From the NCBI GenBank assembly GCA_013288445.1, contig JABDBX010000015.1, positions 1 to 34,049 of the forward strand: a stretch of DNA of 34,049 nt, in the 5' to 3' direction. Under the pieces are notes generated by a model. The model was not told where the DNA came from. It did no database searches and worked only from the letters and a program-made list of their open reading frames with translations. Of this stretch, positions 126-19,470 are shown in pieces. Origin of the DNA: Bacteroidota bacterium. Its GTDB lineage: Bacteria; Bacteroidota; Bacteroidia; Chitinophagales; Chitinophagaceae. Numbering within the stretch: position 1 is the stretch's first letter; every line of letters begins with the position of its first letter. The position numbers and the translations under genes were made by a program.

Positions 126-722
126 CTATGCATTCCGCCCTTTAAGTACCCAATACAGCCCCTTGCAGTCAGACCGCATGGCGGGGAGGAGGAGGAGGAC
201 TATTGTTTCTTCGAGGTAGGAGCAGATGCCCCAAACTATGGCGAGGACAAACAGCCAGTGATAAAAGCCGGAAAAAAAGAGGACGAAAAAGAATATACCC
301 TGCACGTAGCCGCCGGTTTTGCAGGAGTACAAATGCAGGCTGGGGTACTTGCCAAACCGGGCAAGCGACACCAGCAGGGAAAATATATAGGTGGCTAAAA
401 ACACCCATAGCAGCATGGCAGATGGGCTTATATCGTGCCACTTGAACCGGAAGATGCCGGAAACGGCAAGGATGTAGGTGCCAATATCGGCAAGCGAATC
501 GAGCCGGGCGCCGAAACGCGTCTGCAGCTTGAATGTGCGGGCTACCAGGCCATCGAGTATGTCGGTGACCAGGTTGATACAAAGGAAAATCGAGAATAGC
601 TTTTCATTGCCCGATGCTACAAAATACAGTATGACGGGGAAGGTGAGCAGCCGGTAAAAGCTGAGCAGGTTCGGGACGTTGAAAATGTTTTCTTTGTCAG
701 GTAGTGTGTTATTTGTGGCCAT
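126..722 (-). CDS. CDP-alcohol phosphatidyltransferase family membrane protein
   Basis: CDP-OH-P transferase signature DG-LVAR-(8)-G-ARLD-SLAD (DILDGLVARTFKLQTRFGARLDSLADIGTY); multiple hydrophobic segments; 'NVPNLLSFYRLL' N-terminus typical of PgsA-like proteins. Confidence 0.88.
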   Translation of the reverse strand: MATNNTLPDKENIFNVPNLLSFYRLLTFPVILYFVASGNEKLFSIFLCINLVTDILDGLVARTFKLQTRFGARLDSLADIGTYILAVSGIFRFKWHDISPSAMLLWVFLATYIFSLLVSLARFGKYPSLHLYSCKTGGYVQGIFFFVLFFSGFYHWLFVLAIVWGICSYLEETIVLLLLPAMRSDCKGLYWVLKGRNA

Positions 723-797
723 AGTTCAAGTTACGCTTTGCCCGGTATAGTTTTGTGCAATTGTAAAAAAACTTTTTTGCATTCATAAGTGTCCGGC

Positions 798-862
798 GCT
801 ACATGGTCAGCCCTGAAAGGGCGTGATCTAATAGCGATGGGCATCGCCCATCGAACGCTCAT
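798..862. repeat. REP-like paired-palindrome element (copy A)
   Basis: GCCCTGAAAGGGC and CGATGGGCATCGCCCATCG palindromes joined by gtgatcTAATAG. Lies in the gap between the CarS-like and CDP-alcohol transferase genes. Confidence 0.6.
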
Positions 863-867
863 TGGTA

Positions 868-1398
868 TTAAAAACTCTTTTTGATCTTTAACTGAAACAA
901 TAACAGCGAAAAGGTGACATGGATAATAAACGAAACCACAAACAACTCAACGGCCATACTGCCGCTGATGCTGGTAATGAAGTAGTAAACGATAGTGACG
1001 GGTAGGAGCGAATCGGTTTTGTCTATAACATGCTGTAGTAGTTTATAGCGGTGGTGCGACTGGCCTGATGAAATGCCCAGCCTTCGTTTGATGTACGAAT
1101 TTGGCAACTCTGCGATGAGGTAGGTGAGCCCTAAAATGAAGCCAATGCTAAAGGACCAGGCATTGCCAGGCTCATGCAATACGAGCGCCCGGAAGAATAA
1201 GCAACTGAGGCCGCAGGCTACAGGCATAACTATAAAGGCGCGGTAGGTTTTCCCCGCCCCGAATAATGGCACGGAAAGCGGCCTTGCCGCCCAGGCCATG
1301 TAGTTGCGCTTCACAATGAGCATATGCAACACATTGCCTATGAACAGGGGCAAAATGAAGGTGTAGATATGTGGGTAAAATGCGGTCATCTCATGCAT
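868..1398 (-). CDS. CDP-archaeol synthase (CarS/DUF46)-like membrane protein
   Basis: FGAGKTYRAFI near the N-terminus, ELPNSYIKRRLGIS in the middle and a C-terminal 'HVIDKTDSLLP' correspond to CarS-type motifs (GKTwRG..., NSFIKRR..., D..D). Polytopic hydrophobic profile. Confidence 0.7.
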   Translation of the reverse strand: MHEMTAFYPHIYTFILPLFIGNVLHMLIVKRNYMAWAARPLSVPLFGAGKTYRAFIVMPVACGLSCLFFRALVLHEPGNAWSFSIGFILGLTYLIAELPNSYIKRRLGISSGQSHHRYKLLQHVIDKTDSLLPVTIVYYFITSISGSMAVELFVVSFIIHVTFSLLLFQLKIKKSF

Positions 1399-2086
1399 GG
1401 AAAAACAGGACTAATATAATAACAACCGTTGCAGGAATGGTAATGTTGTCGATGCCCTTGCCGCTCAATGCCTCGCTTACAGCTGCCAGCGCTGCAATGA
1501 GCACGGCTACTGGTAAAAGCAAACCCCAGCTAACGCCATGGGCAAAGCATAAAAACAAGACGATCCCCAGGGTGAATGACGACACAAAAAAGGCCGAGGA
1601 GCCTACCAATGTTTTGGTATCGCTGCCTATGGTGAAGCGGCCATACGGGAAGTTCTTTCCGGCAAGGGCAGCTACGGGGTCGCAGATAGCCAGCGTGAGT
1701 ATGGGCAGGTAGAAATACAGGTAGGGATCTGGGGCGATGGCATTTTTGCGGGCGTAATAATCATACACTAAGTAGCAGCCATACACGGCAACCGGGTAGG
1801 AAATACTGCCATGCGACTTGCGGTCTATACCATTTATGGACTTTAAAAAATGGAACCGCAGGCTGGCCAGGATGATGAGCGCGAAAGTGGCGCAAAGCAG
1901 CAATACCAGCCATTGGTTATGCAGCAGTACAGGGAACAGCAATGTAAGGAAACCTGTGCCTATATGCACGAGCTTACGAGTGAGTTCTGCCTTGACGTGG
2001 CATTTATAATAAAGAAGTTCTGCCACACCAAAAAGGCTAAGGAAAGACAGCGCCAGCAGCGTGGTATTGATGATGTCCCTGCTCAT
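1391..2086 (-). CDS. Dolichol/phytol kinase-like (SEC59/VTE5/DGK1-type) CTP-dependent kinase or cytidylyltransferase-like membrane protein
   Basis: Motifs 'RKLVHIGTGF', 'DPVAALAGKNFPYGRF' and 'DTKTLVGSSAFF' match the phytol/dolichol kinase family. Overlaps the downstream CarS-like start (1391-1398) and the upstream HMGR stop (2083-2086). Confidence 0.75.
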   Translation of the reverse strand: MSRDIINTTLLALSFLSLFGVAELLYYKCHVKAELTRKLVHIGTGFLTLLFPVLLHNQWLVLLLCATFALIILASLRFHFLKSINGIDRKSHGSISYPVAVYGCYLVYDYYARKNAIAPDPYLYFYLPILTLAICDPVAALAGKNFPYGRFTIGSDTKTLVGSSAFFVSSFTLGIVLFLCFAHGVSWGLLLPVAVLIAALAAVSEALSGKGIDNITIPATVVIILVLFFHA

Positions 2087-3360
2087 TTTTTTCGCCCGAA
2101 TTTTTTATGTGCCGACGAAAAATGCCCTGCCGAAAGGGCTGCAGCAATGGACAGTTCGCCGGCCAGCACCAGGGCGCCACAGATCTCGGCAAACTTACGG
2201 GCCTTGCCCACGCCGTAGCAATCCATTAGTTCCAGGCATTCTTTTTGGGTGGGTAGCCCCGTGCCGCCGCCTATTGTGCCCACGATAAGGTTAGGCAGTG
2301 TGACGCTGACATACAGGTCGCCACCAGGTGTAACCTCCATACGGGTAATGCCCACTGCGGCTTCCGATACACAGGCTACATCCTGCCCGGTAGCAAGGAA
2401 CAATGCAGCAAGGCCATTGGCATAATGCCCCTGTGCACCTATAGCCCCGCTTTGGATGGCCCCTATTGTTGATGACTTCCAGTATTCCGACATGGCCTCC
2501 GGTGTTGTTTTCAGCACCTCGTTCACTATCTTTTCCGGCAGGCATATCTCGGTGGTCACTTTCTTGCCCCGCACCGTGCTAAAGGACAGGGATGTGGCCT
2601 TCTTGTCGCCGGAATAATTGCTTTCTATAAACCAGAACAATGGTTTCACGGGTGCATTTTCCACTATGTAGTGGCATATGGCATCGGTGCAAAGCGTTAC
2701 CATATTTTGCCCTGATGCATCGCCGGTATGGTATTCAAAAGTGAGGATGAGGTGGTTGCCCTCTATGTTGGTTGTTACTTCTGTCAATTTAGCAAAGCGG
2801 CTGGTTCGCTCCGTTATGGCTTTGAACTCGTCCATTTGCGGCAGTAGCCAGATAAGGAACTGGCCGAGTTCAGATATGTCTTTGAACTTGAAGAGTGGGC
2901 TGCGCTGCACCCCTTCCACCAGGCATATGGAAGTGGCGCCGCCAGCCAGGTTGCAAGCCTTTGCGCCACGGTGGTAAGAAGCCACCAAAGCCCCCTCGCT
3001 CGTGGCCAGCGGCACATAAAAATCGCCATTGGCGGCAGAACCTATTACCCGTAGAGGCCCTATCACCCCCATTGGAATCATGGCCATGCCTATGTAATTC
3101 TCTATGTTGCCATTGAGCGCACTTAGATCTGAGAAGTTCTTTTTCCCTGCAACAAACGGAAGCTCCTTACCTGTTTCCCCGGCCAGGAACTGAAGCCGTT
3201 TATTTATGCCCTCTTCACAGACAGATTGCTCGAATGGCATATTCGCCAACGCAACTTCGCCCGAAGATTTGTTTTGGATATTCCCTATCAGCACATCAAT
3301 ATTGTGCAGTGCGCCTATCATTTCCAGGGCGCTCCTCGCCTTATCATTTGTAGATGCCAT
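2083..3360 (-). CDS. Hydroxymethylglutaryl-CoA reductase (class I-like)
   Basis: ENYIGMAMIPMGVIGPL, VPLATSEGALVAS, TGDASGQNMVTLCTDA, SGDKKAT, ATGQDVACVSEA, LPNLIVGTIGGGTGLPTQ, GELSIAAALSAGH motifs of HMG-CoA reductase. Confidence 0.95.
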   Translation of the reverse strand: MASTNDKARSALEMIGALHNIDVLIGNIQNKSSGEVALANMPFEQSVCEEGINKRLQFLAGETGKELPFVAGKKNFSDLSALNGNIENYIGMAMIPMGVIGPLRVIGSAANGDFYVPLATSEGALVASYHRGAKACNLAGGATSICLVEGVQRSPLFKFKDISELGQFLIWLLPQMDEFKAITERTSRFAKLTEVTTNIEGNHLILTFEYHTGDASGQNMVTLCTDAICHYIVENAPVKPLFWFIESNYSGDKKATSLSFSTVRGKKVTTEICLPEKIVNEVLKTTPEAMSEYWKSSTIGAIQSGAIGAQGHYANGLAALFLATGQDVACVSEAAVGITRMEVTPGGDLYVSVTLPNLIVGTIGGGTGLPTQKECLELMDCYGVGKARKFAEICGALVLAGELSIAAALSAGHFSSAHKKFGRKK

Positions 3361-8867: not shown

Positions 8868-11800
8868 TTACTTCCCTTCAACGCCGTGTTCCTTACCAGT
8901 TTCATCAAACTGGCCCTGTACATTTCCCCGTGTAAATGATGCTGTTCCAAAAGCGAAGTATGAGATCTTATCGTACATCGCAGGCGCGCGGAACTTTCCC
9001 GTTTTCAGCTCTATTAGTCCCCATTTGTCCCCGTCTTTCACTATTGCTATTTTGTTCTTGTACACCTGTCTTATGGCGTCATACCTGCAAGCAATAAGTT
9101 GTTTTCCGTTACTGTTTATCACTCCCCATTTGCCGGCTTTTTGCACCAGGAATACCGGGTTGTCCTCCAGCGTATTGGCGTAGCTGTTATTGGCAATCTC
9201 ATCATAGACTGGCTGGGTACGCATAGCGCCATCCGGGCCTATAAGGCATTGTTTCTGCTTGCGATATCCCCTGATGAAAGCAACTCCCGGCTCCGCATAC
9301 CAAAGTGGTTCTACCTCGTCTAGTATCATCGGTGTTTTCATAGCCCCGTTGGTGTCCACGATCCCTAATTTATCTCCATTGCCTACCTCAAACAGAGCAA
9401 GGTCGTCACCTATGCGGTCTGCGCGGCGATAATCGCCTTTGATGAGCGTTTTTCCCCGCATATCGGTAACGCCCTTTATGCCCATGTAGTAGAGCCGCCA
9501 GTAGCCGCCATCAAGCTCGGGGTAGTACCAACCTTTTTTGGAGAAGAGTAAGCGGCCTATGTTATCAAATACTGAAGTTTCGGAATCCAGCCTATTTATT
9601 TTGTGCCCAATGATGTAATCGCCCTTTTCATAATCCAGGTCGAAGTAAACAGCGGGAATCTGCCACTCTTTACTTTCCCGGTCATATAGCCCTACCTTTC
9701 CGTTTACCCGTATCACCTGCTGGCCATTGAACCATATGCTTTTTATTACCGTTCCGTTTACCAGGTCGTCCCCAGCCGGCACTGCCGCCAGGGTATCCCT
9801 GGTGATGTTGAGCCAGTATTTTTTGCCATCAAGCCATGCGCTGAAATTATTTCCGGGCCGCCCAGGGCCAATGCTTTCCCACCTCCCGGTCAGCGTCCTG
9901 CCTGCGCCTGACAGTATAGTGCAGTAGTTATCTCTTTTAACGGTGAGGTAGTTATTTTCCAGCGTTTTGGGGTTGTCAAATCGGTCGTAGGCGCATGGTA
10001 GTATCTCTGCGCCACGTGTATTGCAAAGCCCCTCCTTCCCGTTTCTATGGGTAACAATATAGGGTTGGCCGCTAATGCTTTCCAGCGAATCATATTCCGG
10101 TGGTATCATCCAACCCTTGCCAACGATGGTACATCCCCATTTGTTATTGTCGAGCTGCACAAAGTAACTATGGTTGTGCGTACCATCTGGTACCAGTTTC
10201 TTTGTGTGCATATAGGCCACCCGGTCGCCGGTAAGGATATCTATTAGCGCCGGGCTGCCATCAGCGAGGTAGTATTTTATGGGTTCGTAATAGCCGGGAT
10301 TGAGCGCATAACAGTTTTTAACGATCTGCGTGCGCTGGGCTGTGTCCAGCTTTATGGGTTCAGGAATGGCGATTTTGCCCACAATATTATAGAGCGAATC
10401 GCCCAGGCTATCCAGAACCAGTACGGACGTTCCTGTTATTACTAAACCCTCAGGCTTTTTCCGGAAGGGTAGTACCTGGCTCCCATCTGAGTCAATGACA
10501 GCCACGTTGCCTGATGAGTCGCGCACCAGGAGGAAATTGCCCCGGTTATTGTAATTGAATCCCTGGAAATAGTCTGCGATCTTGATCCCTTTTGAATTGT
10601 ACAATCCCTGGTCGTTTCCGTAAGGCAATAGATAAACCCAACTGCGCATCCAGGGCGTCCCCTTTCTTTCCCGGTGTTCTTCTTTTCCGGTGCGGTGTGC
10701 CTGGTCATATAGTAGCGTCATGCCTGCTAAGATGTTGCCGGTATTGTCGTCCTGCCGGTTCGGCATCTGGTCCATTACTTCCGGTACACTTATATATCCG
10801 CGTTTGTCGAGAATACCATATTTACCGTTTCGAAGGAACCAATAATTCCCTGTGTTCAACTCACCGACTGTGTCAAGATCATGTTTCAATACATTGTGGC
10901 CGGCGCTGTTCATCACCCCCCACTTCCCGTTTTCGTCCTTTAGGAGCAGCATGTGCGCACTATTAAGTATCACCGCCTTTCCATCGGTGTAAAGGCAATC
11001 GTGAACTAATTTGCCCTCCATGTCCACAACGCCCCATTGGTCGCCTTGGTACACTTTGAGCGCCCGGTCCCTGCTGTCGGTCTTGTAGGCGGTGTATGCA
11101 ATGGGCAGCAGTAATTTGCCGGTGTTGCTGACTAAGCCATACATGGTATCCTGCTTCAATAAAACGTAGTCTGCAGGGAATGGGTCTTGCCAGTTGGAAA
11201 GTGGGACGACCCCGCCACGGTAGCGCGTCACCGTCAATTTGTCGGGATCGATAAAGGTAACGCTATCTTCGTTTACTACTTTAAATTTTTCCTGGTACGC
11301 CCCCGTGATTATATCGTTGCGCAGCAGTTTGCCCTTGTCGGTTACCAGCCTATAACCTGTGCCATCGTTGGCAAGAAACACATGCTTCTTCAGCACGTGG
11401 ATCTCGCGGTATTGCACCGGCAATACCAGGGTTCCTTCATCGTCTGTGAGCCCATATCGGCTTTCATCTGGTATATAGGGGCCAACGGTCAACCGATAGT
11501 CTCCATGCAACTGCCCCAGAGATGGATCAATTTTCTCCTCAACAGGGTCATCGGTTATCTCTGTTTTCTCGGCAAGCAGGTATCCCAGGTCAGCCTCTTT
11601 TAGGGAAGTGAATTCCGCAGGGCCATCCTGCTTGCCCGAGACGAGGCGGCGCAAGCCAGGTACCTGTTCCCTGGTATAAGTATCATCGGGCGCAAACCTG
11701 TACTTTACAATTTTTCTATGCCGCATATCGTACCAGGCAACGACGGGGCCGGGGTTGCCAATATCTTCAAGGGCGATATACCGCTTTGCGTAAAGCCCGC

Positions 11801-12764
11801 TCATATCATAACTACCGGCAGGCAATACCAGGGTGCCTGCAGAATCTCTCAGCTCCGGCCCTATGCCATTGAGCCGGTGCAGCACAAACCAGCAATTTGC
11901 GGTAGGGAATATGAGGTTATAAATGGCCGGGAAAAGCTGGTGCGCATTCGTGTCTATCAGCGTCTTATTTTCTGATCCTCCGACCGAAAGATAATTGGCC
12001 AAGACCGGGTCGGGGTAGTGGTCGCCGAGCTCGGAATATTTGAACGGGGACAGATACTTACCAGTGGGTTTCATTAACGCCCATTGCCCCATTTTTTTAA
12101 TCCCTGTCATCCCGTTGCTGAAAAACGAACAGCCATCAAAAAGCCCCGAAAAAACAGCCTTCCCCGCCCGGTCGAAAATATAAAGGGAATCGCCAGCCTG
12201 CGCCCCGCAATAGTATTGCCCCCGGTATATATGGTCGAATCTAAGCGGGATAACCGTATCGCCTTTATAATTTATAGCGCCCTGCGGCAAATAGGCCAGG
12301 TCGTAATTGGTTGCAGGTATAAACCGTGGGCAATCCTGCCAATTATAGAATTTCATTAGTTCCACACCCGCTGCGTTGATGAGGGACAGGTTTGTGCCAG
12401 GGCCATATATACCTATGATGCCGGGGTCGAATACAACTGCGCTGTCAAATTTATAAGGAACCTCGCGCACCAGGTTTCCGTTGCTGTCTGTCAGTGAGCA
12501 GGAGCCGTTCATGTGATCCAGTACCAGCATTCCACCGATATCGCTGATGCGCGTGTATTCTGGTAAGGCCAATAGCCTGCCGGTACGGTCGGCCATGCCA
12601 TAATAATTTCCTTTTTTGAAAAGATAAACATTGTGTAACCTGGTAACCGAGTCAAACTGAAGCGATAGCTCCTTGTAACCATCTGCGGGCGACTGTCCAA
12701 GGGACATATACCCGGCTAAAAGGCAAAACCATAAGAGTACAATGCGGTATGACAAACCTCCCAT
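8868..12764 (-). CDS. Very large secreted WG-repeat-containing protein
   Basis: Many 'KWGVINSNGKQLI..YD.I' / 'WGVVDMEGKLV' repeats (WG_beta_rep) along the whole length. Signal peptide MGGLSYRIVLLWFCLLAGYMSLGQ from an internal ATG; the ORF extends to 12812. Confidence 0.88.
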   Translation of the reverse strand: MGGLSYRIVLLWFCLLAGYMSLGQSPADGYKELSLQFDSVTRLHNVYLFKKGNYYGMADRTGRLLALPEYTRISDIGGMLVLDHMNGSCSLTDSNGNLVREVPYKFDSAVVFDPGIIGIYGPGTNLSLINAAGVELMKFYNWQDCPRFIPATNYDLAYLPQGAINYKGDTVIPLRFDHIYRGQYYCGAQAGDSLYIFDRAGKAVFSGLFDGCSFFSNGMTGIKKMGQWALMKPTGKYLSPFKYSELGDHYPDPVLANYLSVGGSENKTLIDTNAHQLFPAIYNLIFPTANCWFVLHRLNGIGPELRDSAGTLVLPAGSYDMSGLYAKRYIALEDIGNPGPVVAWYDMRHRKIVKYRFAPDDTYTREQVPGLRRLVSGKQDGPAEFTSLKEADLGYLLAEKTEITDDPVEEKIDPSLGQLHGDYRLTVGPYIPDESRYGLTDDEGTLVLPVQYREIHVLKKHVFLANDGTGYRLVTDKGKLLRNDIITGAYQEKFKVVNEDSVTFIDPDKLTVTRYRGGVVPLSNWQDPFPADYVLLKQDTMYGLVSNTGKLLLPIAYTAYKTDSRDRALKVYQGDQWGVVDMEGKLVHDCLYTDGKAVILNSAHMLLLKDENGKWGVMNSAGHNVLKHDLDTVGELNTGNYWFLRNGKYGILDKRGYISVPEVMDQMPNRQDDNTGNILAGMTLLYDQAHRTGKEEHRERKGTPWMRSWVYLLPYGNDQGLYNSKGIKIADYFQGFNYNNRGNFLLVRDSSGNVAVIDSDGSQVLPFRKKPEGLVITGTSVLVLDSLGDSLYNIVGKIAIPEPIKLDTAQRTQIVKNCYALNPGYYEPIKYYLADGSPALIDILTGDRVAYMHTKKLVPDGTHNHSYFVQLDNNKWGCTIVGKGWMIPPEYDSLESISGQPYIVTHRNGKEGLCNTRGAEILPCAYDRFDNPKTLENNYLTVKRDNYCTILSGAGRTLTGRWESIGPGRPGNNFSAWLDGKKYWLNITRDTLAAVPAGDDLVNGTVIKSIWFNGQQVIRVNGKVGLYDRESKEWQIPAVYFDLDYEKGDYIIGHKINRLDSETSVFDNIGRLLFSKKGWYYPELDGGYWRLYYMGIKGVTDMRGKTLIKGDYRRADRIGDDLALFEVGNGDKLGIVDTNGAMKTPMILDEVEPLWYAEPGVAFIRGYRKQKQCLIGPDGAMRTQPVYDEIANNSYANTLEDNPVFLVQKAGKWGVINSNGKQLIACRYDAIRQVYKNKIAIVKDGDKWGLIELKTGKFRAPAMYDKISYFAFGTASFTRGNVQGQFDETGKEHGVEGK

Positions 12765-13068
12765 ATTTATAAAGACGTAGAGCGCACGCTCATTATTGGG
12801 TAAGGAACGCATTTTAACAAATATTGCGGGAAATTAATGAAAATATAGCACGTGATAAGAAAAGAGCTATAACAACATAGCCGTTTCGGCAGAAAGAATA
12901 GCAGAAGAGAAGTCTGCGGTTTTCACCGGAAAAAATCCTTGTTTTACCTTCCTGAAACACCTGCTTTACCTAATTTCATTAGCCCGTAACTTAGGGTTGG
13001 TATATGTTTGTAGTAGTGTTTAAGCATTCACAAATGCTATGAAATGCTAACGGATAAAACGAACAACT

Positions 13069-16029: not shown

Positions 16030-18645
16030 TCACAGTACCTCCACATACCCATCCGTACAATTCACCCTTATTCGTTGCCCGTCCTTTATGAGCTTAGTGG
16101 CGTTTTCTACGCCTACCACTGCCGGTAAGCCATATTCCCGTGCTATGACTGCTCCATGGGTCATGAGCCCACCAACCTCGGTGACCAAGCCCCTTATGGA
16201 GACAAACAATGGTGTCCAACTGGGGTCTGTAAACGAGGTGACTAATATGTCGCCTTCTTCCAGGTCGGCATCTTCCATTGTTAAGATGACGCGGGCCCGC
16301 CCCTCTACAGTGCCTGAGGAAACAGCAAGGCCTGCAATAGCTCCGGCGGGCAGATCTTCGCCGCTATAGCTACCAGAGACGACCTCTCCATCGGATGTGA
16401 TGACACGTGGTGGCGTTAATTTTCCAGATAGCTTGTATTCATCCTTTCGCTGGTCGATGAGTTTGCAATCGAGTTTATTAGTGCGTGCGACCTCATGAAG
16501 TTCCTCAAAAGTGAGGTAGTAAATATCTTCGGTCTCCTGGATAATGTTGGCTTGTACGAGCCGCTCTGCCTTTCTTATCAAAGCCTGCTTGTAAACAAAG
16601 TAACGGCTCACTATACCATATTTTGGGTACTCACGATAACCTATGAAATTGCGGAGCAGGCTGATCATTTCTTTAGTTTCCCCGGCCTTTTGTTCGCCAT
16701 CGGGCAGTTGCTTTAGCCGGGCTAATAGCTCCTGCTCTTTTTTCAAAGCTTCCTGTCGTCCGTGCTCAAATTTCCTGCTGCCTTCGCCCGCTTCAAACTT
16801 CCTGATGTTCGTAAGTATGGTGGGGACAAGTGTAGTTGGTTTTTCGCTCCACCGAGTCCTGGTAATATCAATTTCACCGGCACACCGCATTCCGTATTTG
16901 TTGAGGTAAGCGGAGATAGCATCCAGTACTTCCTTTCCTCCATTAAACTTAACAAGCTCCGCCATGAAGCTGTCATCTTTCAGGTTTTGTAAGTACTCAA
17001 TTACTTGCGGATAGGGCCGAATAATATCGGCGACATCCAGCAGGTCGCGACCCATCTCTGAAGTAATATTGTTGGGTACAGATTGGGAAAGCGTATCTGC
17101 TACATTTTTCTCACCCAGCCACTCCATCATATGGTCGTTGATCCATGCCGATGCATCTATGGCGGCCATAAACACGGCTGTACTTTGAGGGTCGGCCAAC
17201 ATTGATCTTAGCACCCCAATGTCATCCACAATAAAATCAAACAGTTCCTGCCCCGATTTGGTTTCGATGTTTTGTTTTAGGGCCTCCACAGATGCGTGGC
17301 TTCGACTGATGAGGTCTGAGACTATTGCCGGGTCGTTTTTAATTTGCGCGTGAATATCAGCAAACGATTTTCCTTTGCTGCTTTTTATCGAACTCAATGC
17401 TTGTGTACCATCGGGCGCCGGTTTTATAAAATCTCCCCGCTCTATGATGGCCATGATCGCATCTTGTATAAGCGGATCATGCTCGCCCATCACCGCTAAC
17501 AATATCTCTCTGCCGGCAGGCGAAGCCAACTGTTGCGTGACATCAACAAACAGCCGCCCGCCTGCTTCGTGCATTGGTCTGCGTGCCGTTAACTGCCAAA
17601 TGGATATGCCGAGTGGTCTCATAGCATCAGTCATCATTTGTTGATGACCAACAGATATATAGACGTGATTTTCCTGGTCACTAGCTTTTGGAATGGGAAA
17701 CAATGTAGTTATAGGCCGGCTTTGGACCATATAGAATGCATCGTTAGCTAAACACCATTCTATGTCTTGTGGGCAGCCGAAATGTGTTTCGATCTTTCTG
17801 CCGATGCCCTCCAGGTGTAATATCTGTTCATCGGTGAGCACCTGCTGGTTCTGCAATCCAGGCTCAATCTGCTGTTCTTTGGTGCCGCCATCATTGAGCC
17901 CATAAATAGCCAGTTTCTTCGTGGCTATTCGTTTATCGATGATGTTGCCATTAACCACTTTGTAGTTGTCAGCATTCACCAGGCCAGAGACCATTGCCTC
18001 GCCAAGTCCGAAGCCGGCATCTATGGATAATACTTTCCTGTTGCCGTTAACGGGATCGGCGGTAAACAAAATGCCGGCTACCTGCGGGAGTACCATTTTC
18101 TGAACAACAACCGCTAAATGAACTGTACGGTGGTCGAAGCCATTTTGCAGGCGGTAAACTACGGCCCGCTCTGTGAATAGCGATGCCCAGCATTTGCTGA
18201 TGTGCTTTAGTATGGCCTCGCGCGCTATGATGTTTAAGTAGGTGTCCTGCTGGCCTGCGAATGATGCAGTGGGCAGATCCTCCGCCGTAGCGCTGGAGCG
18301 TATGGCATAGGCATCTTTCTCCCCAAGCCTGGAGAGGAAGCTGCGAATCTCTTCCCTAATCTCTTGCGGGATGGCAACACACTCTATGGCCCCGCGTATC
18401 TCACCGCTGAGTTCGCTTATCTTACCCCGGTCTTGTATGTTTAGCTGCGATAGTTGATAGAGTAGTTCCTGAATCAATGGCGTTTCCTCGATGATCCTTT
18501 TAAAAGCATCAGTAGCAATACAAAAGCCATCCGGTACGCGTATCCCTTCTATCCTGGTAAGCTCTCCCAGGTTCGCGCCCTTGCCGCCAACGAGGCCGAT
18601 CTTTGTTTTATCAACCTCGTGAAAACCCAATACAAATGAACCCAT
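16030..18645 (-). CDS. rph: Rifampin (rifamycin) phosphotransferase
   Basis: 'VLGFHEVDKTKIGLVGGKGANLGELTRIEGIRVPDGFCIATDAFKRIIEETP', 'DAYAIRSSATAEDLPTASFAGQQDTYLNI', 'KCWASLFTERAVVYRLQNGFDHR' and C-terminal 'GGLMTHGAVIAREYGLPAVVGVENAT' closely match the Rph family rather than housekeeping PpsA. The start at 18645 gives 871 aa, close to known Rph sizes. Confidence 0.9.
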   Translation of the reverse strand: MGSFVLGFHEVDKTKIGLVGGKGANLGELTRIEGIRVPDGFCIATDAFKRIIEETPLIQELLYQLSQLNIQDRGKISELSGEIRGAIECVAIPQEIREEIRSFLSRLGEKDAYAIRSSATAEDLPTASFAGQQDTYLNIIAREAILKHISKCWASLFTERAVVYRLQNGFDHRTVHLAVVVQKMVLPQVAGILFTADPVNGNRKVLSIDAGFGLGEAMVSGLVNADNYKVVNGNIIDKRIATKKLAIYGLNDGGTKEQQIEPGLQNQQVLTDEQILHLEGIGRKIETHFGCPQDIEWCLANDAFYMVQSRPITTLFPIPKASDQENHVYISVGHQQMMTDAMRPLGISIWQLTARRPMHEAGGRLFVDVTQQLASPAGREILLAVMGEHDPLIQDAIMAIIERGDFIKPAPDGTQALSSIKSSKGKSFADIHAQIKNDPAIVSDLISRSHASVEALKQNIETKSGQELFDFIVDDIGVLRSMLADPQSTAVFMAAIDASAWINDHMMEWLGEKNVADTLSQSVPNNITSEMGRDLLDVADIIRPYPQVIEYLQNLKDDSFMAELVKFNGGKEVLDAISAYLNKYGMRCAGEIDITRTRWSEKPTTLVPTILTNIRKFEAGEGSRKFEHGRQEALKKEQELLARLKQLPDGEQKAGETKEMISLLRNFIGYREYPKYGIVSRYFVYKQALIRKAERLVQANIIQETEDIYYLTFEELHEVARTNKLDCKLIDQRKDEYKLSGKLTPPRVITSDGEVVSGSYSGEDLPAGAIAGLAVSSGTVEGRARVILTMEDADLEEGDILVTSFTDPSWTPLFVSIRGLVTEVGGLMTHGAVIAREYGLPAVVGVENATKLIKDGQRIRVNCTDGYVEVL

Positions 18646-18665
18646 AGTGATGCTTTTTGAGCAGC

Positions 18666-18673
18666 CAAAAGTA
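18666..18673 (-). promoter_or_regulatory. Candidate -7 element (TACTTTTG) for rph
   Basis: CAAAAGTA on +, about 20 bp upstream of the proposed start at 18645; supports the shorter start. Confidence 0.4.
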
Positions 18674-18819
18674 GCGGATACCACCCTGCCGAAACACCTT
18701 TTTGTACTATATTTTTTTGGGGCAATAAATGGTGTGGGCAGTGCGTTTATTAGACAAAGGAGCGGAGTGATTACTATACCATATCTACGGGGAAATGTTC
18801 CACTGTCCGCAGACGTTCC

Positions 18820-19470
18820 TCACGACAGAAATGATTTAATTGCAACAGCCAGCGAGGGAAGACCTTTTCTGATCCAGCGCTTTTTCAGGGCTTGCTTTGC
18901 TGCAAAGGTTACTTCACCATTTTCTATTCTTGCAAGCAGCGTAGGTATCGCCATACCATCATAAAGCTCGATGACACCGAATGTGTCTTTATAAGTATTG
19001 ATGTGCTCAAGGTTTTTTTCATAGACCCCTTTAATCGTTGAAGGTTCGACATAGTGCCCTCCTTCAATAACTCTCTGCTCCACCCGGGCGACACAGTCAC
19101 TTACTTTATCAAGACACAAATAATTAAGTTGTATCTGGTAATGACTTCTTTCAAACAGGTCTATATATGCCCAATAATCTGGATGAGAAAGTGGTGTTTC
19201 CAGCACAAAATGATCCTTCATCTTTATAGCACTCTTCATTTCAAGCAACAATTTCTGTTCCATCATTGCCGTGGCCTGCCTGAAAATATCATTAGATTTT
19301 ACGCCCTGCCCCGTCAATACTTTCTCAAACTGAACACGGGTCATATCTCGGTCGAATGACCAGATACCTTTGAAGGCCGGGGGAAGCATAATTTGAATGC
19401 ACGTAGATTTCCCAGCTCCATTCGGCCCGGAGATGACTATTAATGTTGGCTTAGAGTAATCCATAAGCAC
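18820..19470 (-). CDS. Zeta-toxin-like / predicted P-loop ATPase (COG4185-type)
   Basis: Walker A 'VISGPNGAGKST', 'FDRDMTR', 'HFVLETPLSHPDYWAYIDLFERSHYQIQLNYLCLD', 'RVEQRVIEGGHYVEPSTIKGVYEKNLEHI' typical of the zeta-like family. Confidence 0.82.
   Translation of the reverse strand: MLMDYSKPTLIVISGPNGAGKSTCIQIMLPPAFKGIWSFDRDMTRVQFEKVLTGQGVKSNDIFRQATAMMEQKLLLEMKSAIKMKDHFVLETPLSHPDYWAYIDLFERSHYQIQLNYLCLDKVSDCVARVEQRVIEGGHYVEPSTIKGVYEKNLEHINTYKDTFGVIELYDGMAIPTLLARIENGEVTFAAKQALKKRWIRKGLPSLAVAIKSFLS

What the first reader, a model, noticed from the sequence alone, without database searches (positions are those of the whole stretch)
126..3360. Candidate isoprenoid/ether-phospholipid operon: HMG-CoA reductase + phytol/dolichol-kinase-like + CarS-like + CDP-alcohol phosphatidyltransferase
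Seen: four same-strand genes, two junctions overlapping (2083/2086 and 1391/1398), so probably co-transcribed. Established: HMGR commits carbon to mevalonate; the SEC59/VTE5 family phosphorylates polyprenyl/phytyl alcohols (related DGK1 acts on diacylglycerol); CarS makes CDP-archaeol in archaea; CDP-alcohol phosphatidyltransferases add a polar head group. Inference: together these look like 'make isoprenoid, phosphorylate, activate with CTP, attach head group', a compact pathway to an unusual isoprenoid or diether-type lipid in a bacterium. The CarS-like and kinase-like proteins could alternatively act on acyl lipids. No GGGP or DGGGP synthase is in the window.
Basis: partly seen in the sequence, partly recalled or inferred. 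Interest (0 to 1): 0.72.

Follow-up and report, generated by a model that had tools for sequence, protein, structure and literature searches.

The report
Lipid operon with altered HMG-CoA reductase
A Bacteroidota bacterium carries a small operon of a statin-target-like reductase followed by three membrane-lipid enzymes; the reductase has lost the residues that hold its normal substrate, and relatives build it into a larger, apparently unreported gene cluster that probably makes an unknown lipid.

Summary
The four genes are real and the family calls are right: class I HMGR fold, SEC59/VTE5-type lipid-alcohol kinase, CarS-like cytidylyltransferase, CDP-alcohol phosphatidyltransferase. The same four-gene order recurs in a second species (L009). 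The reading 'HMGR makes mevalonate for isoprenoid/archaeal lipids' is not supported. Nearly complete relatives that carry this HMGR use the MEP pathway and lack HMG-CoA synthase and mevalonate-diphosphate decarboxylase. The two genomes that do have a mevalonate route carry a separate class II HMGR for it. The HMGR keeps the catalytic Glu/Lys/Asp/His, but in all ~45 relatives compared the HMG-carboxylate clamp is gone (human Lys735 to Ser/Val/Thr/Ala/Pro/His; Ser684 to Glu/Asp). It is probably a reductase of another acyl-CoA. It heads a conserved, apparently undescribed Bacteroidota cluster: HMGR, UbiA-like, rifampin-phosphotransferase-like, BtaA-like (DUF3419), kinase, GNAT, acyl-AMP ligase. 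The window is a shortened form. Independent gene swaps (CdsA-like for CarS; an APH kinase fused to the HMGR) suggest that reductase, kinase, cytidylyltransferase and CDP-alcohol transferase form one functional module. Proposed chemistry: acyl-CoA to alcohol to phosphate to CDP-alcohol to phosphodiester lipid. Substrate and product are unknown.

The parts
2083..3360 (-). Class I HMG-CoA-reductase-fold protein, 425 aa, first gene of the operon. Catalytic E122, K253, D327, H418 kept (human E559, K691, D767, H866); HMG-pocket residues replaced (human S684 to E246, K735 to S296, A751 to G311).
   Evidence: PF00368 388.6 bits; best solved relative 6hr7, 283 bits; residue tables
1391..2086 (-). SEC59/VTE5/DGK1-like (CTP_transf_1 superfamily) lipid-alcohol kinase, 231 aa, membrane protein; start overlaps the HMGR stop (ATGA)
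   Evidence: motifs; ortholog weakly hits CTP_transf_1; model pLDDT 85.7 with top PDB fold match CDP-DAG synthetase 4q2e
868..1398 (-). CarS-like CTP:lipid-phosphate cytidylyltransferase, 176 aa; motifs GAGKTYR, E(L/F)PNSxxKR, DKxDSLL conserved in three genomes
   Evidence: PF01864 31.6 bits over the cut-off of 22; NCBIfam PRK04032 48.4 bits, below its cut-off of 148; alignment
126..722 (-). CDP-alcohol phosphatidyltransferase, 198 aa; head-group or lipid transfer step
   Evidence: PF01066 76 bits; no NCBIfam equivalog reaches its cut-off; orthologs near HMGR in L005, L007, L009, L012-L014, L127
723..867 (.). 145-nt spacer with a short palindrome (GATGGGCGATGCCCATC); in L007 and L009 the two genes lie about 30 nt apart
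   Evidence: spacing in relatives

Best explanation
The operon is a four-enzyme lipid pathway. The HMGR-fold enzyme has changed substrate: it still does the NADPH-dependent reduction of a CoA thioester to a primary alcohol, but on an acyl-CoA without the HMG carboxylate. The alcohol, or a lipid built from it, is phosphorylated by the SEC59/VTE5-like kinase, activated to a CDP-derivative by the CarS-like enzyme, and joined through a phosphodiester to a second alcohol by the CDP-alcohol phosphatidyltransferase. It is a reduced form of a longer Bacteroidota cluster in which UbiA-like, RPH-like, BtaA-like, GNAT and acyl-AMP-ligase enzymes work with the same reductase and kinase, giving a BtaA-decorated (homoserine-type) lipid instead. 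Shown: families, residues, gene order, co-occurrence, absence of the mevalonate pathway in relatives. Inferred: that the HMGR product is what the kinase acts on, and all chemistry. Unknown: acyl group, head group, physiological role.
For: Operon order kept in L009. The same four functions sit together in G550 as HMGR-CDPOH-CdsA-like-kinase, with a CTP_transf_1 protein in place of CarS. In G091 the HMGR is fused to an APH/choline-kinase-like domain followed by CarS and CDPOH, with no SEC59-like kinase beside it; fusion is a classic sign of consecutive steps. HMGR-APH fusions also occur in G683 and G760, behind a P-loop nucleoside-kinase-like gene. Catalytic residues kept, clamp lost in every relative examined; Lys735 makes the salt bridge to the HMG terminal carboxylate (PMC9500038) and Ser684 lines the HMG pocket (PMC7503714), and both are kept in human, Arabidopsis and Methanothermococcus. 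DXR present; HMG-CoA synthase and MDD absent in G051 (100% complete), G102 (98%), G091 (98%) and G150, the same-genus L008 genome. G152 and G157 have a mevalonate route with a separate class II HMGR. In L089 the acyl-AMP ligase ORF overlaps the HMGR start. Seven-gene cluster in at least four family-level groups of the phylum. BtaA-like gene found only in HMGR genomes (8 of 80 genomes).
Against: No substrate is known, and residue changes predict loss of HMG binding but not what replaces it; Arg590, Asp690, Lys692 and Asn755, which also line the pocket, are kept. HMG-CoA can also arise from leucine breakdown, which I did not test. The kinase, CarS and CDPOH could act on ordinary diacylglycerol rather than on the HMGR product. 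The window's genome is 65% complete, so its own missing genes say little. Only three genomes have the CarS form.
Confidence: 0.45

Rival explanations
1. One reading: a genuine HMGR makes mevalonate that feeds an isoprenoid or diether phospholipid; the kinase phosphorylates a polyprenyl alcohol or archaeol-like lipid, CarS makes the CDP-lipid and CDPOH adds the head group.
For: Class I HMGR fold with all four catalytic residues; CarS family hit over the cut-off; GGGP synthase homologs in almost all relatives, and Bacteroidetes GGGP synthases are reported active with G1P (cited in PMC7852524).
Against: Relatives use MEP and lack HMG-CoA synthase and mevalonate-diphosphate decarboxylase; the clamp for the HMG carboxylate is lost; genomes with a mevalonate route use a separate class II HMGR; GGGP synthase is also present without the cluster.
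Confidence: 0.12
2. Two separate substrates: kinase, CarS and CDPOH handle a diacylglycerol-like lipid (salvage or a dedicated head group), while the HMGR makes a small alcohol that CDPOH attaches as the head group.
For: DGK1 of the same kinase family acts on diacylglycerol (established knowledge); BtaA, present in the long cluster, acts on diacylglycerol in known systems (established knowledge); CDPOH stays close to the HMGR in the short forms.
Against: The HMGR-APH fusion in G091 couples reduction directly to phosphorylation, more natural if the kinase acts on the HMGR product.
Confidence: 0.28
3. The reductase makes an allylic or fatty alcohol that becomes an ether- or prenyl-type chain (via alcohol phosphate or diphosphate and the UbiA-like enzyme in the long cluster), and the window's short operon joins such chains to a phosphate head group.
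For: UbiA-like protein keeps a DExxDxxxD-type motif and PVPRG; RPH-like and SEC59-like kinases plus a P-loop kinase in some relatives could give mono- and diphosphates; acyl-AMP ligase overlaps the HMGR in L089.
Against: No UbiA-like gene in the window operon; UbiA chemistry needs an allylic diphosphate, which is not shown.
Confidence: 0.15

Closest known systems
Class I HMG-CoA reductase (EC 1.1.1.34; human HMGCR, Methanothermococcus 6hr7)
   Same: Fold, whole catalytic-domain length, Glu/Lys/Asp/His catalytic set, DAxGxN and GGGT motifs
   Different: Ser684 to Glu, Lys735 to Ser, Ala751 to Gly; relatives have no mevalonate pathway around it; embedded in a lipid gene cluster
Archaeal CDP-archaeol synthase CarS (PF01864, PRK04032)
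   Same: Over the Pfam cut-off across the family's C-terminal three quarters
   Different: Far below the NCBIfam equivalog cut-off; in a bacterium; linked to HMGR-like and kinase genes; replaced by a CdsA-like protein in G550
SEC59 dolichol kinase / VTE5 phytol kinase / DGK1
   Same: CTP_transf_1-superfamily fold, KTxxGS and DNxxIP motifs
   Different: Substrate unknown; no Pfam match of its own; bacterial operon
BtaA betaine-lipid synthesis (DUF3419, PF11899)
   Same: BtaA-like protein in the long form of the cluster
   Different: No recurrent BtaB-type methyltransferase beside it; absent from the window's short form
Archaeal-type ether lipid genes in the FCB group (Villanueva et al., PMC7852524)
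   Same: Idea of archaeal lipid enzymes in this superphylum; GGGP synthase in relatives
   Different: Those Cloacimonetes genomes lack CarS, and HMGR is not mentioned in that paper; here no link of the cluster to GGGP synthase

Membership tests
Class I HMG-CoA reductase (as mevalonate-forming enzyme) | Catalytic Glu559, Lys691, Asp767, His866 | tested here: met
   E122, K253, D327, H418
Class I HMG-CoA reductase (as mevalonate-forming enzyme) | HMG-carboxylate binding Lys735 and pocket residue Ser684 | tested here: not met
   S296 and E246; lost in all relatives. The K just before S296 is not conserved (K/Q/R/A)
Class I HMG-CoA reductase (as mevalonate-forming enzyme) | Host has the other mevalonate-pathway enzymes | tested here: not met
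   No PF01154 or TIGR01240 hit in the nearly complete relatives; DXR present. Own genome inconclusive (65% complete)
CDP-archaeol synthase CarS | Pfam CarS-like model over the gathering score | tested here: met
   31.6 vs 22 bits
CDP-archaeol synthase CarS | NCBIfam equivalog PRK04032 cut-off | tested here: not met
   48.4 vs 148 bits
CDP-archaeol synthase CarS | Activity on unsaturated archaetidic acid | not testable with these tools
   needs biochemistry
SEC59/VTE5/DGK1 kinase | CTP_transf_1 superfamily fold and motifs | tested here: met
   motifs; fold match to CDP-DAG synthetase, weak E-value
SEC59/VTE5/DGK1 kinase | Pfam cut-off for CTP_transf_1 | tested here: not met
   no hit for the window protein; 17 vs 24 bits for the L013 ortholog
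CDP-alcohol phosphatidyltransferase | PF01066 over the cut-off | tested here: met
   76 vs 22 bits
Archaeal ether-lipid pathway | GGGP synthase in the genome | tested here: inconclusive
   absent in the incomplete own genome; present in 10 of 13 genomes, including one without the HMGR
Archaeal ether-lipid pathway | DGGGP synthase and G1P dehydrogenase | not tested

The most novel reading that the evidence does not exclude
A branch of the HMG-CoA reductase superfamily has become a reductase of a different acyl-CoA and starts an undescribed class of bacterial membrane lipid, made by a gene cluster found across several families of Bacteroidota; the window shows a compact version that ends in a CDP-activated phospholipid.
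Probability: 0.45. Interest if true: 0.82.

Novelty: new variant of a known kind. Interest (0 to 1): 0.68.

Why it matters
HMGR is one of the most studied enzymes in biology and is normally treated as specific for HMG-CoA. A large clade with the catalytic centre kept and the substrate clamp lost, tied to lipid kinases and CTP-transferases, suggests a new use of this fold and a lipid that has not been looked for. Genome annotation would call these genes mevalonate-pathway HMGR and wrongly predict that route in bacteria that use MEP.

Tried and rejected
Mevalonate pathway in the host: rejected for relatives. Link with GGGP synthase: present irrespective of the cluster. Structure of the CarS-like protein: model too poor to use (pLDDT 41). 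Fold search of the kinase: only CDP-DAG synthetase stood out, with a weak E-value. Literature searches for the cluster, DUF3419 or HMGR-like acyl-CoA reductases found no description. The long standalone HMGR-like proteins had no recurrent neighbours, so they did not help with the substrate. Promoter and terminator scans were uninformative.

Full report
OBSERVATION. The window is contig C15 of a 65%-complete genome of 3.05 Mb in 215 contigs. The four ORFs exist at the stated coordinates on the minus strand, with an ATGA overlap between HMGR and kinase and an 8-nt overlap between kinase and CarS-like gene. Pfam confirms HMGR, CarS-like and CDP-alcohol phosphatidyltransferase. The 231-aa protein has no Pfam hit but carries the motifs I recall for the SEC59/VTE5/DGK1 kinases, its L013 ortholog touches CTP_transf_1, and its model resembles CDP-DAG synthetase.

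CONSERVATION. The same gene order occurs in L009, a different genome with 84% identical HMGR. In 399 genomes of the family the HMGR is in ten (an eleventh hit is a short 21-bit match) and the CarS-like gene in two, both of them HMGR genomes with the genes adjacent. In the window's genus, one other species (G746, which has the same locus as L008) has the HMGR and seven near-complete ones lack it, so the trait is patchy.

THE LONG CLUSTER. Relatives place the HMGR at the head of a seven-gene cluster: HMGR, UbiA-like, RPH-like (PPDK_N plus PEP-utilizers, best matched to rifampin-phosphotransferase structures), BtaA-like DUF3419, SEC59-like kinase, GNAT, acyl-AMP ligase. It is found, wholly or largely, in L006, L008, L010, L012, L013/L105, L085, L086, L087, L089, L103 with L005, L108, L111, L112 and L129, spanning family-level groups f1, f2, f13 and f38 of the phylum. 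A BtaA-like gene was found in 8 of 80 genomes, all of them HMGR carriers. CdsA-like and/or CDPOH genes accompany it in G102, G154, G155 and G156. In the HMGR tree the window (short form), L009 (short form) and L008 (long form) fall together, so the short form is most likely derived from the long one.

THE FOUR-FUNCTION MODULE. Three assemblies of the same four functions exist: window and L009 (HMGR, SEC59-like, CarS, CDPOH); G550 (HMGR, CDPOH, CdsA-like CTP_transf_1, SEC59-like); and G091 (a very divergent HMGR fused to an APH/choline-kinase-like domain, then CarS and CDPOH 67-72% identical to the window's). Replacement of the cytidylyltransferase in one case and of the kinase in another, with the functions kept, is the best evidence that they are successive steps. 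HMGR-APH fusions recur in G683 and G760 behind a P-loop kinase.

THE REDUCTASE IS NOT AN ORDINARY HMGR. Aligned to human, Methanothermococcus and (through the printed alignment) Arabidopsis HMGR, all catalytic residues are kept. Human Lys735, which makes the salt bridge with the HMG carboxylate (PMC9500038), is Ser296, and Ser684 of the HMG pocket (PMC7503714) is Glu246. The change holds in the cluster HMGRs and in the standalone class I HMGR-like proteins retrieved from Bacteroidota and Lysobacterales; position 735 is Ser, Val, Thr, Ala, Ile, Met, Pro or His, never Lys, and 684 is Glu, or Asp in G091. An acidic residue near where the carboxylate should sit argues against HMG-CoA as substrate. 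This is inference from sequence; no activity is known.

PATHWAY CONTEXT. DXR is present, and HMG-CoA synthase and mevalonate-diphosphate decarboxylase are absent, in the nearly complete relatives G051, G102 and G091 and in the same-genus genome G150. G152 (a Chitinophagales MAG) and G157 (Lysobacterales) have mevalonate-route genes, and each carries a second, class II-type HMGR. GGGP synthase homologs are in 10 of 13 genomes, including same-genus G099 without the HMGR.

MECHANISM PROPOSED. R-CO-SCoA to R-CH2OH (HMGR-like), to R-CH2-O-P (SEC59-like or APH kinase), to CDP-O-CH2R (CarS- or CdsA-like), to a phosphodiester lipid (CDPOH). In the long cluster the acyl-AMP ligase would supply the acyl-CoA (it overlaps the HMGR start in L089), RPH-like and SEC59-like kinases would phosphorylate, the UbiA-like enzyme would alkylate an acceptor, BtaA would add an aminocarboxypropyl group and GNAT might acylate it. 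The order of steps and all substrates are inferred.

LIMITS. Literature searches covered open-access PMC papers only.

Noticed in passing
window 16030-18684 (-): 884-aa protein matching solved rifampin-phosphotransferase-type structures over its whole length (1129 bits), a likely RPH; beside it a Zeta-toxin-like P-loop protein (18820-19470).
   Followed up: partly
L015/L071, L047-L053, L056-L059, L061-L070 (several): Standalone 515-540-aa HMGR-like proteins with a conserved N-terminal ~100-aa region (LLKQLYTFGSLENT...), in Bacteroidota and a Lysobacterales MAG, same loss of Lys735 and Ser684; no recurrent neighbours.
   Followed up: partly
L125:8472-11631, L126:8418-11529: HMGR-APH fusion gene directly after a deoxynucleoside/thymidylate-kinase-like P-loop kinase in two 9-10 Mb genomes of the same family.
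   Followed up: partly
L101:9319-13129: HMGR-like gene next to an enoyl-CoA hydratase and an HpaB-family protein; may hint at its acyl-CoA substrate.
   Followed up: no
L007:3802-4653: Fatty-acid-desaturase-like gene downstream of CarS and CDPOH in G091.
   Followed up: no
window 8868-12812 (-): 1314-aa WG-repeat protein.
   Followed up: no
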